Part shown: piece by piece, positions 33,164-42,864 of the stretch
How positions within the stretch are numbered: position 1 is the stretch's first letter
Layout: each line of letters starts with the position of its first letter
Source: a virus
Length of the DNA stretch: 44,923 nucleotides
Strand: one strand, 5' to 3'
IMG/VR virus record: IMGVR_UViG_3300042946_000505
Span: 1-44,923 of that record
Translations under genes and position numbers: made by a program
Notes under the pieces: model-generated
The model's database searches: none
Seen by the model: only the letters and a program-made list of their open reading frames with translations
Told to the model about the DNA's origin: nothing

Positions 33164-35491
33164 TCATCGTACAGAATCAAGGCCCGATCCTCCAAACGCC
33201 TCCTTTCCGTATGACTTCCTAGTGGACGGCGTGTTTAGTTCATTTGTTCCGTATTTCTTACGGGGCCCGGCCTGGGGCTCGACTCCTACTGTACGAACGC
33301 CACACACTGAGGCCGAGACGCAGCACCCCACTAAGCAGTCGAGCCAGTGGTTGTCCTGGCCGACTATCTTGGTCTTCCATTCATCCACCACCCTGCCCCT
33401 CGCCTCCGTCCTGACCGGGGCCTCTGCGAGAAGGTGGTCGATGAGCAGGCCGTGCTCGTAGTCGCTAAACACAGCCAAGCACCCAGGCTCCCCGACAACC
33501 GTCTGGAATCTCGCGGTGGCGAACGACTTCCAGAAGTTTGTGTCATATACGCAGTGCCGAACCGCACGCTTTCCGGCAGTGCCTGGGATTCGCCAGTTTG
33601 GCCCAACGCGGTCGCCCAGCCGCTTGGCGTATTCGGAGAATGGCAGAGAAGAGGCCCCGACGTACCGGCCGTGCGACGGCATGACGAGGCTCGCCATCGG
33701 CGTAGTGCGGCAAAACTGGTACACGATGTCAGTGGACGCGCCCCAGTTCGCGTCAATCATCATCTTCTCGATGCGCTGCGGCGTTCCATCATCGAACCTG
33801 TATTCGCGTGTCAGGAGCATGGTGACGCACTTATCGAGTGCCGCGTACAGGTTTGCCTCAAAAGCCGACTCTCGGTGCTCGATCTGTATGGTTTTCTTGG
33901 CGTCCCTCATCGTGAAGTAGCCACGGCCCTGCTCTGGATGCGTCCCGTAGTCGATGATTGAGCCGCTAAAGTTGTCCTCCCACGCACAGACCATCCAGTA
34001 CAGGATCGTCTGCTGGACGTCGATGAACGCGGTGATTCTGGTGGTCTTGGCCGGAATCACGCCTCGCTTGTAGCCGTTTCGCTTCTTGTTAATGACCTCT
34101 GCCGACAGCACCTCCATGTGGTCTGTCAGCGACGGCAGCGGCTCGTTCTGGTATTCGGCGTAAAAGGCGTTGTCGCCGCGGTCGCAGCGAATGTTCATCG
34201 CGTGCTGGATCGCGCTGAGTTCGCTTGGGTCGTGCCGTGCAGGCCATGAAACCTCTGACCCCTCGTCCATCGCCTCGCGGTTAGTTTCGTAGAACTTTGT
34301 GGCGACCATCGTGCCAGTGCCTTCCGCTTGGCCGGCACGACGCAAGTCGAAGTACGAAGCCCACAGGGCCTCATTCTTTGGAAACGCATACACCATCCGC
34401 GTGCGCTCGCCCTGCCACGCAGGGTGCTTCGTGCGGTCGAGCATCCTGTCGGCCATATCGTCCTGCTGAACGACAGTGACCGTCATCAAGCCTGCGATCT
34501 TCTTGCCTGGGCCTGCGAGGCCGAGGATTGCACCAGACAGGATTGCTTCGCGTGTCGCGCACTGGCTGGGCGACTTGGCCGACTCATCGGTCTGCGGATC
34601 GTCCACGAGGATGAGCGACGGGCGAACGCTGCGGCCATCTGGCCTTTTGAACTTCATGCCACGGATTCGGCCAGTGATGCCGCCGACGCGGATGATCCCG
34701 CCGGACGCCATCGAGCCAGGAATGGTCGGCAGCACGATTTCGCCTGACGTCCACCCAATGTGCGTGCGCTCGCCGCTGAACAACTGGCCCTTCGCCCTCT
34801 GGTGGATGCCCTCCAGAGCGCGAATCGGGCCGGTAATCTCTGACCAATCCTCGTCTAGGAGGTCGTTGTTCTCTAACTCGCTCTTGATCGAGTCGAGCAT
34901 GTCGGCTGCATGGCCTTCGTCAGATCCGATCAGCGTCACAAACTCATGAGCACCGATGATTAGGGCCCACAGGCAGCCCATTTCACACAAGGTCGTTTTG
35001 CCGCTTCCGCGAGGCATCGCCATCGCGAAAAGCTCGCCTTCGAGCACCGCCCTCTCGATCTTTGAGATGACGCGAAGGTGATCTTCTGACCACGGCAAGT
35101 GGAACAGCATCGGAAAGTACGCATCGCAGAACGCCCGGAAACTCATGGTCGCGGAGTCTTTGCGTTGCTGGTCTTTAGCGGGGCGAACCCATTCCTCTTC
35201 GGCTATGTCTCTGCCAGCCTCAGAGATATTCCTGGCACGCTTGGCCGCAGACGCCTTGACCTTCTCGTAGTCCGACCGTTCGCTGCCGGGCTCGGGCCTC
35301 GCCTCGCCCCGGACGTTGAAAAGCCACGCGGCATACCTGACGAGGTGAACCGTCCTGCCGTCGCCAACCTTTAGGCCAGCCCTATTGAGGTGCCGGTAGA
35401 CCACTCGCGGTGCGATCACCTCCCCCACTGGCGTGCTGTTCAGCACGCGGGCCACTTCTGGCACGGAGAGTTTCTGTAGGTCGAGTCTCAA
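33164..35491 (-). CDS. terL: Terminase large subunit
   Basis: About 775 residues. I favour a TTG start at 35491 overlapping the small subunit stop (TTGA); a GTG at 35524 is the alternative. Residues about 1-60 form an N-terminal domain (PEVARVLNSTPVGEVIAPRV ... YAAWLFN). The ATPase has Walker A AMPRGSGKTTLCE and Walker B SLILVDDPQ. A nuclease-like C-terminal half includes TAFIDVQQTILYWMVCAWED and MMIDANWG. It packages DNA into the prohead through the portal. The length is greater than most terminases because of the N-terminal domain. Confidence 0.92.
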   Translation of the reverse strand: MRLDLQKLSVPEVARVLNSTPVGEVIAPRVVYRHLNRAGLKVGDGRTVHLVRYAAWLFNVRGEARPEPGSERSDYEKVKASAAKRARNISEAGRDIAEEEWVRPAKDQQRKDSATMSFRAFCDAYFPMLFHLPWSEDHLRVISKIERAVLEGELFAMAMPRGSGKTTLCEMGCLWALIIGAHEFVTLIGSDEGHAADMLDSIKSELENNDLLDEDWSEITGPIRALEGIHQRAKGQLFSGERTHIGWTSGEIVLPTIPGSMASGGIIRVGGITGRIRGMKFKRPDGRSVRPSLILVDDPQTDESAKSPSQCATREAILSGAILGLAGPGKKIAGLMTVTVVQQDDMADRMLDRTKHPAWQGERTRMVYAFPKNEALWASYFDLRRAGQAEGTGTMVATKFYETNREAMDEGSEVSWPARHDPSELSAIQHAMNIRCDRGDNAFYAEYQNEPLPSLTDHMEVLSAEVINKKRNGYKRGVIPAKTTRITAFIDVQQTILYWMVCAWEDNFSGSIIDYGTHPEQGRGYFTMRDAKKTIQIEHRESAFEANLYAALDKCVTMLLTREYRFDDGTPQRIEKMMIDANWGASTDIVYQFCRTTPMASLVMPSHGRYVGASSLPFSEYAKRLGDRVGPNWRIPGTAGKRAVRHCVYDTNFWKSFATARFQTVVGEPGCLAVFSDYEHGLLIDHLLAEAPVRTEARGRVVDEWKTKIVGQDNHWLDCLVGCCVSASVCGVRTVGVEPQAGPRKKYGTNELNTPSTRKSYGKEAFGGSGLDSVR

Positions 35492-35718
35492 TGTCCCAAT
35501 GCCTGAGCCGCCTTGGCAAGCCACGCAGCATAGGCCAAGAGGTTTAGGTTGCCGTCGGAATCAACAGGAGCCCCATCCTCGATGTCTTTTTTGATTTGAC
35601 TTATGTCAACTCCGCGGCCGCTCGCTTTAGCGAGGATTTCAGCCATCTGCAGTGGAGTGAGGGCGGCTAGGTTTACCGACTCGTTTTTTTCGTGTTGTAA
35701 GGTGGTCGATTCTTGCAT
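35488..35718 (-). CDS. Terminase small subunit-like protein
   Basis: 76 residues directly before and overlapping the large subunit. LAALTPLQMAEILAKASGRG followed by DSDGNLNLLAYAAWL looks like a short HTH recognition module. The end, LAYAAWLAKA, parallels RYAAWLFN in the N-terminus of the large subunit, suggesting that the two share an ancient domain. It would recognise packaging DNA. Small for a full TerS, so an accessory is possible. Confidence 0.7.
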   Translation of the reverse strand: MQESTTLQHEKNESVNLAALTPLQMAEILAKASGRGVDISQIKKDIEDGAPVDSDGNLNLLAYAAWLAKAAQALGH

Positions 35719-35769
35719 GGGTTACAATGGGGCCTTTTCAGGCCATTACCAGGAAGGAGGATGGCGACT

Positions 35770-36156
35770 ATGAGGCACATACGGCAATACAACGAGTTTG
35801 ACTGCGGGCTGGCGGTAGCGGCCATGATCTGCGGCAAGAAGTGGCAGGACGCGGCAGATGCCGATACGCATCCCACAAAGGCAGACGGCCTGACCACGAA
35901 AGAGTTTCTGGTGATGTGCAGCGCGCTTGGGTCGCGAATCGGCATGATCAAGGCAAGCGGCAAGATGCACCTCAAAAACGCCACGCCGCCTGATCGGTGC
36001 TGCGGCATGCTCATCCATCGCTTCGGCGCAAGGGTGGGCCACTATGTGGCCTTCGACGGCAAGTACGTCTATGACCCTGACTGCAAGCGTCGCGTTCGAT
36101 GGTCATCGTACCGCCGCCGCCCGTGGAAGATTTGCCGCTGGTTCGTGGCTTGCTAG
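35770..36156 (+). CDS. C39-like cysteine peptidase (lone plus-strand gene)
   Basis: 128 residues. The start at 35770 is chosen because AAGGAGG is nine bases upstream; an ATG at 35761 would be too close. RQYNEFDCGLAVAAMI carries the C39-family pattern with Gln6 and Cys12, and VGHYVAFDG with YDPDC supplies His91 and Asp103. C39-like domains cleave after double glycine in leader peptides or act as other papain-like hydrolases. The gene runs against its neighbours and is bounded by a hairpin, so it looks like a moron acquired separately. Confidence 0.83.
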   Translation: MRHIRQYNEFDCGLAVAAMICGKKWQDAADADTHPTKADGLTTKEFLVMCSALGSRIGMIKASGKMHLKNATPPDRCCGMLIHRFGARVGHYVAFDGKYVYDPDCKRRVRWSSYRRRPWKICRWFVAC

Positions 36157-36209: not shown

Positions 36210-36407
36210 TTACTTCTTCTTCTTCTTGGCGGCCTTCTTCTTGGCCGGGGCCTTCTTCTTCGCAGTCTTCTTCTTCGCGGTCCGGCCGCCCTTCTTCGCT
36301 CCACCCTTCTTGGCCTTGCCCTTGCCGCCCTTGCCCTTGCCGCCCTTGCCCTTGGAACCGCCGGCCTTGCAGCCGATCAGTTCGTCGCCCTGGATAGAAA
36401 CGCTCAT
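36210..36407 (-). CDS. Lys-rich histone H1-like peptide
   Basis: About 65 residues. The start is the ATG at 36407 (or at 36410), with GAGGTG just upstream. After MSVSIQGDELIGCKAG the rest is a repeating Gly/Lys and Ala/Lys tail (KGKGGKGKGGKGKAKKGG, then KKKAPAKKKAAKKKKK). Such tails bind DNA non-specifically. The repetitive DNA makes slippage likely. The tail of the protein at 4696 has the same style. Confidence 0.7.
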   Translation of the reverse strand: MSVSIQGDELIGCKAGGSKGKGGKGKGGKGKAKKGGAKKGGRTAKKKTAKKKAPAKKKAAKKKKK

Positions 36408-36475
36408 CATGCACCTCAAGTCGGGCAGTAAGTTCAACCAGCGACGCGCCCGCGATCATCGCTGGTTGTTGTGTC

Positions 36476-37729
36476 CTAAAAGAGGCCCGCGTCTTTCCGA
36501 GCCTTGTGATACGAATCGAACCAAACGTACTTCGGCCCCTTGGGCAGATTTGGCTCAAGCCACGTCCTGTTCTCGCCGCCGTAGATGATGATCTTTGCCG
36601 TCTTGATTCTTTCGCACCATTGGTGCATGCCACGGCAGAACAACTGCTTGCCCTTTTCATCATCCCTGTATGTCCTGCACTGCACCATTGCGCACGGCAC
36701 CTCTTTCGGGATGCCAATGAAAATCCATTCCCAACTCGCTTCGTCCGCGATGTTGATGTTTGGGATTATCTTGTGTCCAGCCTCCTGCCAGTACCGAGAG
36801 CACCACCTCGCTCGATAGGTGTTCCAGATATTGAATGCTGCTGGCTCGTCGGCCCAGGTCGAGAAGTCGGGCATCACTAGAGCGCCCGGCTTGATAACGC
36901 GCATCTTGTCGAGGAAGTTTGCGGACTTCTCCCAGATCGCGGACTCAAACCGATCATCGCTCGCGTAGAAGTTGATTACGTGGCCGGTCATTCGCTGATC
37001 GACGCCAACAGAACTCCAGCAGATCATCTGCGTCGGGGCTTCGTCGCCGTCCTTGATGTATATCTTGCGAATGTCGCCGTCCCACAACATGCTCGGTATC
37101 AGGTCTGGAAAGCCGAGCCAGTTGCTCGATGAAAAAATCGCGTCTTCGCGAAAGGTCGTGATCGAGTCCTGCTCGACGTTCGGCTCCTCTGGCTCCTCGT
37201 CATCCTCGATCTCTTCTTCGAGGTAGTTCTTGACCGGCTCGTCGCCTCGCACTGTTGGGGCTAGTTCTGGGGCCTGAGTCTCGGTCGCACTCGCCAGCGT
37301 TGGCCTGTCTGCCTCAAAGACCTTCTCGGCTAGCGGCGACAGCAGGGCATCCACCTCGTGCGTGTCGAATGCGAGGCCGCTGAAATCATTCCAGCCCATA
37401 TCGGACAGGGCCTTGAGTTCCGCCGAGAGCAGGCCAACGTCCCACTCTGCGATCTCGTTCGTTTTGTTGTCTGCGATTCGATACGCGGCGACCTTGTCTG
37501 CCGTCAGGTCTTTTGCCACCAGCACCGGCACCTTGTCTTCGCCTAGTTTGATGGCGGCAAGGTATCGCGTGTGACCAACGATGATGACCTTGTGTTGGTC
37601 AACGACTATCGGCTGACGCCATCCGAACTGACGAATGGATGCCGCGACGGCATCGACTGCCTTCTCGTTGCGTCGAGGGTTCTTGCCATACGGCGCGATC
37701 GCGTCGAGCGCGAGCATTTCCACTTTCAT
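36476..37729 (-). CDS. ParB/Srx-domain protein fused to DUF4417
   Basis: 417 residues. Residues 1-100 are a ParB N-terminal-like domain (APYGKNPRRNEKAVDAVAAS, RQPIVVDQHKVIIVGHTRYL with the GHTR motif, and IADNKTNEIAEW). An acidic linker (EEEIEDDEEPEEP, about 170-185) leads to a C-terminal DUF4417 domain (INFYASDDRFESAIWEKS, MPDFSTWADEPAAFNIWNTY, ARWCSRYWQEAGHKIIPNIN, IIIYGGENRTW). In many phages a ParB domain is instead fused to a DNA methylase. The joint function is unknown; DNA cleavage or modification is possible. Confidence 0.85.
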   Translation of the reverse strand: MKVEMLALDAIAPYGKNPRRNEKAVDAVAASIRQFGWRQPIVVDQHKVIIVGHTRYLAAIKLGEDKVPVLVAKDLTADKVAAYRIADNKTNEIAEWDVGLLSAELKALSDMGWNDFSGLAFDTHEVDALLSPLAEKVFEADRPTLASATETQAPELAPTVRGDEPVKNYLEEEIEDDEEPEEPNVEQDSITTFREDAIFSSSNWLGFPDLIPSMLWDGDIRKIYIKDGDEAPTQMICWSSVGVDQRMTGHVINFYASDDRFESAIWEKSANFLDKMRVIKPGALVMPDFSTWADEPAAFNIWNTYRARWCSRYWQEAGHKIIPNINIADEASWEWIFIGIPKEVPCAMVQCRTYRDDEKGKQLFCRGMHQWCERIKTAKIIIYGGENRTWLEPNLPKGPKYVWFDSYHKARKDAGLF

Positions 37730-41769: not shown

Positions 41770-42659
41770 TTCTTTACGCTCCTTGTGAATCGCCGCGAGT
41801 AAGCCGTTCTGGCCTCCTGCGACTTGTAGTGAACTTCGGACCCCTTCCACGAATACTTCACGCCTTGGGGGGTCAAACCGCCGGCGTGTGTTCCGATCCA
41901 CAACTTCAACTGACTCTCGATCTGCTCACGGCGTTCCGCGAGTTCATCGAGCCTGCTTCGCACCTCCTGCAACTCTGCGTCGAGATCATCTGCCTCTGGA
42001 GAGAGAGCGGTGACGTCTTCGATCTCGACCTTGGGGAACAACGCCTTCACCGTTTCCGCACTGTGCGGCCCGGCTGGCGGTGCTGTCTCTGTTTCGACCT
42101 TGTGCCAGAAGTCTCGCTCGATCTCGATGATGCGAGCCGCAATCTCTGGCGTCAGGTCACGCTCATAAGCCCTAAGGTTCTGGCCGCGATGCAACGCGAC
42201 GAGAACGCCACGGGTTGCCCCGGCGACGATCATTTCGTGCTGCAACTGAACCTCGTAGTGGACAGGCAGTTGCTCGGCCCATACATCGGCGTGGTATGAG
42301 GTGTTCTTGATTTGAACCACCACAAGCTCGCCGTCACGATCTTCCGTCGCGTCCAGTGTGGCACACATGAAGTGATGCTCTGGATGGCGACGAATGACGA
42401 ACGGTTCCGCGAGAGTGACGTTCCGCTTGAACTTGCGGCCGTACCACTCGCCAATCGTTCGCTCTAACACGATCCCTGCCTCTACGGCCTCGTTGTCAGA
42501 GAGGTCATCACCCTCCAACAGGCCCACCTTCTGCGACCAGACCGTCAGGGCATCTCGCCACGGATCTACTCCGCACACTGCCGGTGCATCGCTTCCGCCG
42601 ATACCCTTCTTTCGCTCTTCCAGCCACGCTGCCCGCTTGGCCGCATCAACGATGCTCAT
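41766..42659 (-). CDS. YqaJ-family exonuclease (viral recombinase)
   Basis: 297 residues with AAGGAG before the ATG. ERKKGIGGSDAPAVCGVDPW is the conserved opening. The catalytic core of the PD-(D/E)XK type includes MCATLDATEDRDGELVVVQI with KNTS and HYEVQLQHEMIVAG. A coiled coil (DDLDAELQEVRSRLDELAER) precedes the C-terminus. With RecT it makes a two-component recombination system like lambda exo/bet. Confidence 0.92.
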   Translation of the reverse strand: MSIVDAAKRAAWLEERKKGIGGSDAPAVCGVDPWRDALTVWSQKVGLLEGDDLSDNEAVEAGIVLERTIGEWYGRKFKRNVTLAEPFVIRRHPEHHFMCATLDATEDRDGELVVVQIKNTSYHADVWAEQLPVHYEVQLQHEMIVAGATRGVLVALHRGQNLRAYERDLTPEIAARIIEIERDFWHKVETETAPPAGPHSAETVKALFPKVEIEDVTALSPEADDLDAELQEVRSRLDELAERREQIESQLKLWIGTHAGGLTPQGVKYSWKGSEVHYKSQEARTAYSRRFTRSVKK

Positions 42660-42864
42660 CGCTGCTCCTTACTTGGTTGGTGTTATCCCGCCGGTAATCC
42701 CTCGCCGTGAGGTCATCCAGCAACTCCTCGCGGAAGACATCGAATCCGTGCGGGGCCTCAAACCCCAACTTCACTCGATTGCCGTCGATCCGCGTGACGG
42801 TCACTCTGATCAGGGCTCGCGGTATAACGACCGCTTCACCCTCCTTGCGCGTCAGCACAAGCAT
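42646..42864 (-). CDS. csrA: CsrA-family RNA-binding regulator
   Basis: 72 residues from the ATG at 42864, with AAAGGAG upstream; longer in-frame extensions have no such site. MLVLTRKEGEAVVIP at the N-terminus, VTRIDGNRVKLGFEAP in the middle and VFREEL at the end match CsrA closely. CsrA dimers bind GGA in hairpin loops or at ribosome binding sites. It is the first gene of the leftward recombination operon, so it could regulate phage or host mRNAs early. Confidence 0.93.
   Translation of the reverse strand: MLVLTRKEGEAVVIPRALIRVTVTRIDGNRVKLGFEAPHGFDVFREELLDDLTARDYRRDNTNQVRSSDEHR

What the first reader, a model, noticed from the sequence alone, without database searches (positions are those of the whole stretch)
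36476..37729. ParB-domain protein fused to DUF4417
A ParB/Srx domain with GHTR is joined by an acidic linker to DUF4417, in the place where many phages have a ParB-methyltransferase fusion. DUF4417 lacks a known activity; this architecture suggests it acts on DNA or nucleotides and might be part of a modification or anti-defence function.
Basis: partly seen in the sequence, partly recalled or inferred. Interest (0 to 1): 0.7.

Follow-up and report, generated by a model that had tools for sequence, protein, structure and literature searches.

The report
ParB joined to a transglycosylase-fold domain
This phage gene joins a ParB-type nucleotide-binding domain to DUF4417, a domain of unknown function that is predicted to fold like enzymes that swap bases in tRNA or DNA, and in many phages the DUF4417 gene sits next to genes whose proteins share one short start sequence, GGRG.

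Summary
ORF 36476-37729(-), 417 aa, is a ParB/Srx domain (GHTR at aa 52-55), an acidic disordered linker, and DUF4417 (Pfam E 1e-35). The architecture is not new: PHROG_940 spans it and Kaljevic et al. (PNAS 2025) list it as a phage-enriched fusion of unknown function.

New here: (1) AlphaFold models of DUF4417 best match tRNA-guanine transglycosylases (Z 9.7-10.1). Two Asp are (nearly) invariant, but the TGT nucleophile is not conserved and sequence profiles do not match significantly. (2) ParB genes overlap or lie close to dpdA in several phages, and Dpd systems pair DpdA with ParB-like DpdB, so the fusion resembles that pair. (3) DUF4417 genes are linked to genes for proteins starting GGRG (31/60 loci; 59/61 in the reverse search; 0/80 control loci), as MGGRG or behind a Prp cleavage motif, so both could mature to one free N-terminus. 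Many bodies are effector-like.

The window has no GGRG gene; a Gly/Lys-rich ORF and a C39-peptidase-like gene take that place. Preferred mechanism: a DNA-directed TGT-fold factor acting with a Gly/basic partner before packaging. Chemistry unproven.

The parts
36476..37729 (-). ParB-DUF4417 fusion gene, 417 aa
37280..37729 (-). ParB/Srx NTP-binding fold (aa 1-150); GHTR (P motif) at 37565-37576
   Evidence: Pfam ParB_N; fold match to ParB/Noc CTPases, Z up to 14.6
37115..37279 (-). acidic, disordered linker (aa 151-205)
   Evidence: pLDDT under 50 at aa 152-191; D/E-rich
36479..37114 (-). DUF4417 domain (aa 206-417), predicted TGT-like barrel; D258 (36956-36958), D288 (36866-36868), R306 (36812-36814)
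36210..36410 (-). small Gly/Lys-rich basic ORF (66 aa, 25 K, 15 G), in the position taken by GGRG-tagged genes in relatives
   Evidence: ORFs of similar make-up at the same place in L008, L011, L001, L018 and other loci
35713..36156 (+). C39-like cysteine peptidase ORF, convergent with the fusion gene
   Evidence: Pfam Peptidase_C39 E 0.003, below cut-off; conserved on the opposite strand after the small ORF in L008, L009, L011, L001, L018, L014
37768..38220 (-). RusA-like resolvase, upstream neighbour
33164..35524 (-). terminase large subunit (GpA type), downstream

Best explanation
The protein pairs a ParB-type NTP-binding, DNA-associated module with a compact TGT-fold domain, the same two kinds of parts as DpdB (ParB-like ATPase) and DpdA (TGT-like) of DNA 7-deazaguanine systems, here in one chain. 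It is encoded between recombination and terminase genes, so it probably acts on phage DNA late, before or during packaging. It works with the product of the next gene: in most relatives a protein with an N-terminal GGRG tag, in this lineage a small Gly/Lys-rich protein. I think it brings that partner to the DNA, or treats DNA and partner together, so that the partner is packaged or injected. Shown: the two domains; their predicted folds; the ParB-dpdA gene pairing; the gene linkage to GGRG-tagged proteins. Inferred: the DNA substrate, the partner interaction, and the timing. Unknown: the chemistry, or whether it is still catalytic.
For: Fold: the window model and an independent relative (pLDDT 94.7) both have TGTs as the best DUF4417 matches (ArcTGT 1iq8 Z 10.1 over 187 aa; 1j2b Z 9.7, 161 aa, rmsd 3.1; one non-TGT row in that top 50, a designed TIM barrel at 8.1). 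In the viral library the first named hits outside DUF4417 include four phage queuine tRNA-ribosyltransferases (E 0.02-0.09). ParB pairing: ParB genes overlap dpdA by 4 nt in Godines, Saguaro and phiFN37 and lie within a gene in Typha, Rinkes and StAugustine; they match the ParB domain of the fusions (E 9e-14 to 3e-45). DpdB as ParB-like ATPase with DpdA: PMC12839542. Partner: GGRG genes in 31 of 60 nonredundant DUF4417 loci, all 164 MGGRG hits on the DUF4417 strand, 88 loci within 60 bp of its stop; reverse search from a GGRG family finds DUF4417 in 59 of 61 loci; GTDB replicate 53 of 77, 79 same strand and 1 opposite; 80 ParB-methyltransferase control loci hold none, only terminase P-loops. 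Basic partner in the window lineage.
Against: Foldseek on the single domain gives no PDB hit below E 0.001. The sequence profile against phage DpdA is not significant (probability 1.9%). The residue at the TGT nucleophile position is Asp/Glu in 28 of 53 fusion rows and 10 of 49 others. No preQ0 pathway Pfam hit in the window. The window gene lacks some consensus residues (position 257 is S where 95 of 102 have D; 327 is I where 90 of 102 have W). It has no GGRG gene. The reverse search used one tag family whose loci were dereplicated only by identical protein, and the control loci were not matched by host.
Confidence: 0.4

Rival explanations
1. A DpdA-like DNA base-modifying enzyme: the TGT-fold domain exchanges a base in phage DNA and the ParB domain supplies DNA binding and NTP use; the neighbouring tagged genes are only cargo.
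For: TGT-like fold; ParB next to dpdA; ParB-methyltransferase fusions beside DUF4417 genes; invariant D258 and D288 in 97 of 102.
Against: Nucleophile position not conserved; no preQ0 genes in the window; does not explain why GGRG genes occur with DUF4417 in 59 of 61 loci.
Confidence: 0.25
2. A chaperone, adaptor or antitoxin-like partner: DUF4417 is a non-catalytic TGT-fold domain that binds the N-terminal GGRG tag of diverse effector proteins; its acidic pocket holds the Arg guanidinium as TGT holds guanine.
For: One tag on about 59 groups of unrelated bodies, with deamidase, ADP-ribosyltransferase and nuclease families among DUF4417 neighbours; tag reached by two routes, MGGRG and LQFF-GGRG; nucleophile position not conserved.
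Against: Does not explain the ParB fusion; the window lineage has no GGRG gene; binding untested.
Confidence: 0.25
3. The ParB domain is a nuclease or NTPase and DUF4417 only an accessory fold, for example in DNA processing before packaging.
For: ParB-like domains with nicking or NTPase activity are reported (reviewed in PMC5512222); the gene lies close to terminase.
Against: DUF4417 matches very many phages without the ParB part, including 369 Mycobacterium phage records, and holds the invariant residues.
Confidence: 0.1

Closest known systems
ParB-CTPase fold fused to DUF4417 (Kaljevic et al. 2025, PMC12704722; PHROG_940)
   Same: Same two domains in the same order; phage-borne; function unknown.
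   Different: Nothing essential; the window gene is a divergent member. That paper gives no fold or partner for DUF4417 in its main text.
DpdA (TGT-like) with DpdB (ParB-like), DNA 7-deazaguanine systems
   Same: TGT-like fold plus ParB-like partner; split ParB-dpdA gene pairs in phages.
   Different: Not detectably homologous in sequence; nucleophile Asp not conserved; no preQ0 genes in the window; shorter domain.
ParB-DNA methyltransferase fusions of phages
   Same: Same ParB domain family, similar gene neighbourhood, sometimes side by side.
   Different: DUF4417 replaces the methyltransferase; no SAM-binding domain found by Pfam.
Head-packaged phage effectors (ADP-ribosyltransferases, polyvalent proteins; PMC9503650, PMC5512222)
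   Same: Several GGRG-tagged bodies are effector-like and encoded near terminase.
   Different: Defined by a short shared N-terminus and a DUF4417 neighbour; the tag is not mentioned in the passages of those papers that were searched.

Membership tests
ParB/Srx NTP-binding superfamily | ParB_N fold with GxxR P motif | tested here: met
   Pfam E 2.3e-8; GHTR; ParB/Noc fold match Z up to 14.6
Canonical ParABS ParB | HTH domain, C-terminal dimer domain, ParA partner | tested here: not met
   Only ParB_N and DUF4417 found; no ParA family among the window ORFs scanned with Pfam
DUF4417 (PF14386) | Pfam profile over its cut-off | tested here: met
   123 bits against cut-off 28.9
TGT/DpdA family | TGT-type barrel fold | tested here: inconclusive
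   Best matches in two models, but predicted and close to designed TIM barrels
TGT/DpdA family | sequence profile similarity | tested here: inconclusive
   hhalign probability 1.9%, E 0.026; path pairs FLDDYQF with FLDSGAF
TGT/DpdA family | conserved Asp nucleophile on the last strand | tested here: not met
   Position 207 of L147: E 27, P 26, K 17, D 11 of 102, as placed by eye against DpdA
TGT/DpdA family | base exchange activity | not testable with these tools
   needs assay
DUF4417 / GGRG-tag gene pair | adjacent GGRG-tagged gene | tested here: not met
   No MGGRG in any window frame; Gly/Lys-rich ORF instead

The most novel reading that the evidence does not exclude
DUF4417 joins the free N-terminal glycine of GGRG-tagged (or Gly/Lys-rich) proteins to phage DNA at a base position, in a TGT-like reaction with a protein amine as the incoming group, so that effector proteins are packaged and injected while tethered to the genome; the ParB domain holds the enzyme on DNA.
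Probability: 0.05. Interest if true: 0.97.

Novelty: new variant of a known kind. Interest (0 to 1): 0.6.

Why it matters
DUF4417 is found in hundreds of phage records with no known function. A predicted TGT-like fold gives a first testable biochemical idea, and the linkage to GGRG-tagged proteins points to a two-gene system in which one conserved factor serves many different, often effector-like, proteins. If the partner proteins are packaged with DNA, this would be a general delivery route in phages of Firmicutes and Actinobacteria.

Tried and rejected
PDB sequence search finds only ParB relatives for the whole protein and nothing credible for DUF4417. PADLOC hits only the ParB part of a methyltransferase model. 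NCBIfam ParB models are all below cut-off. The idea of a plain replacement of ParB-methyltransferase was dropped because both occur side by side. The idea that GGRG is just a feature of the slot near ParB-methyltransferase and terminase genes was tested with ParB-methyltransferase loci and not supported. A GGRG gene in the window was sought in six frames and not found. No such start gene was seen in the DpdA loci either (one VGGRGA inside L411). Literature searches for DUF4417 (3 papers) and MGGRG (no phage paper) found no earlier report of the linkage in the held library. Supplementary files of the Kaljevic paper could not be read, so the outcome of its DUF4417 fusion proteins is not known beyond the main text.

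Full report
What is there. The ORF at 36476-37729(-) codes for 417 aa. Pfam places ParB_N at 2-86 (E 2.3e-8) and DUF4417 at 225-388 (E 1.2e-35); PHROG_940, annotated 'nuclease', covers 2-412. AlphaFold (82 sequences) gives mean pLDDT 83 with one disordered stretch, 152-191. The ParB half matches ParB and Noc CTPases (Z up to 14.6) and sulfiredoxins. The record is a 44,923-bp virus contig with integrase, lambda-type portal, GpA-type terminase, RecT, YqaJ and CsrA families.

Is the architecture new? No. tblastn finds 848 phage records with a match to some part, eight with one place over 80% of the query, among them Streptococcus and Gordonia phages. Kaljevic et al. [quoted passage not shown] the text names no nucleotide for them. 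DUF4417 alone also matches 369 Mycobacterium phage records, often as gene 1 or 2.

Fold of DUF4417. Two models were made: the window fusion, and L147, a standalone relative (102 sequences, pLDDT 94.7, pTM 0.89). For both, the best PDB matches of the DUF4417 part after VIA-align are tRNA-guanine transglycosylases: Z 10.1 (1iq8) and 9.7 (1j2b). Designed TIM barrels score 9.1 and 8.1, so the margin is modest, and the TGT rows are many because the PDB holds many TGT entries. Foldseek alone gives no PDB hit under E 0.001. In the viral library the first named hits outside DUF4417 include phage queuine tRNA-ribosyltransferases of Mufasa8, Sonali, Bella96 and ctKHH22 (E 0.02-0.09). A profile comparison with ten phage DpdA proteins is not significant (probability 1.9%, E 0.026), although its path pairs HFFLDDYQF with IFLDSGAF and GMTVIPTVSW with GVRPLPCFH. 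In 102 sequences D68 of L147 (window D258) is invariant, D95 (window D288) is in 97, and P94, F96, S97, G146 are invariant; the last-strand position where DpdA has its conserved Asp is E 27, P 26, K 17, D 11, and Asp/Glu in 28 of 53 fusion rows against 10 of 49 others. I read this as a TGT-like fold with the base-binding acids kept and the nucleophile not conserved; the placement of these positions is by eye.

ParB and DpdA. In Mycobacterium phages Godines and Saguaro and Fusobacterium phage phiFN37 a ParB-like gene overlaps dpdA by 4 nt; ParB lies within a gene in Typha, Rinkes and StAugustine. These ParB proteins match the ParB profile of the DUF4417 fusions. A recent survey states that Dpd systems use DpdA with DpdB, a ParB-like ATPase (PMC12839542). 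The fusion therefore resembles such a pair in one chain. The window shows no GTP cyclohydrolase, QueC, QueD or QueE family.

The neighbour. In 31 of 60 nonredundant DUF4417 loci a same-strand gene begins MGGRG; over all loci 164 such starts lie on the DUF4417 strand and none opposite, and 88 loci have one within 60 bp of the DUF4417 stop. The tagged proteins fall into 59 groups by body, one of them terminases whose P-loop resembles the tag; Pfam recognises glutamine deamidase, ADP-ribosyltransferase and Ntox24 families and others among downstream neighbours. Some carry the tag behind LQFF or LQLF, the Prp cleavage motif of ribosomal protein L27 and of the phage 80alpha capsid and scaffold proteins (PMC9405229). 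Removal of Met from MGGRG and Prp cleavage would give the same N-terminus, GGRG; this is inference. Reverse test: from a GGRG protein family, 59 of 61 loci carry DUF4417 within 8 kb; in one of the two exceptions the tagged gene starts 220 bp from the end of its locus. Control: 80 ParB-methyltransferase loci (767 kb) show no such start, only four terminase P-loops, and one has DUF4417. GTDB replicate: 53 of 77. Limits: the reverse test covers one family, the control is not host-matched, and many loci are related.

The window lineage. There is no GGRG start in the window. Directly after the fusion lies a 66-aa ORF with 25 Lys and 15 Gly, and ORFs of the same make-up follow the fusion in L008, L011, L001, L018 and others. 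Then comes a C39-like peptidase on the opposite strand, conserved in six relatives including two with a fusion only about 30% identical. C39 peptidases are known for cutting after Gly-Gly (general knowledge), so it could process the Gly-rich ORF; this is a guess.

Judgement. What is added is a predicted TGT-like fold, the parallel with DpdA/DpdB, and the GGRG linkage. The preferred mechanism, a DNA-directed TGT-fold factor that works with its tagged or basic neighbour before packaging, has confidence 0.4; base modification without a partner and non-catalytic tag binding are live rivals.

Noticed in passing
window 35713-36156 (+): C39-like cysteine peptidase ORF (QxxxxDCG motif) on the strand opposite to its neighbours, conserved next to the fusion in six related loci.
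   Followed up: partly
window around 42650-42864 (-): Phage-encoded CsrA-like protein (MLVLTRKEGEAVVI...), Pfam CsrA E 1.2e-16 for one window ORF.
   Followed up: no
L236, L211, L230, L221: Several GGRG-tagged genes in tandem, up to four, beside one DUF4417 gene.
   Followed up: partly
L211:3520-4440 and L215:1-885: Related radical SAM proteins encoded near ParB-DUF4417 genes in two loci.
   Followed up: no
L107:1040, L071:1066, L120:1076: Mycobacteriophage-type loci: an MGGRG start followed by a long Gly-rich stretch right after the DUF4417 gene.
   Followed up: partly
L214, L218, L237: ParB-DUF4417 and ParB-methyltransferase genes side by side in one phage.
   Followed up: partly
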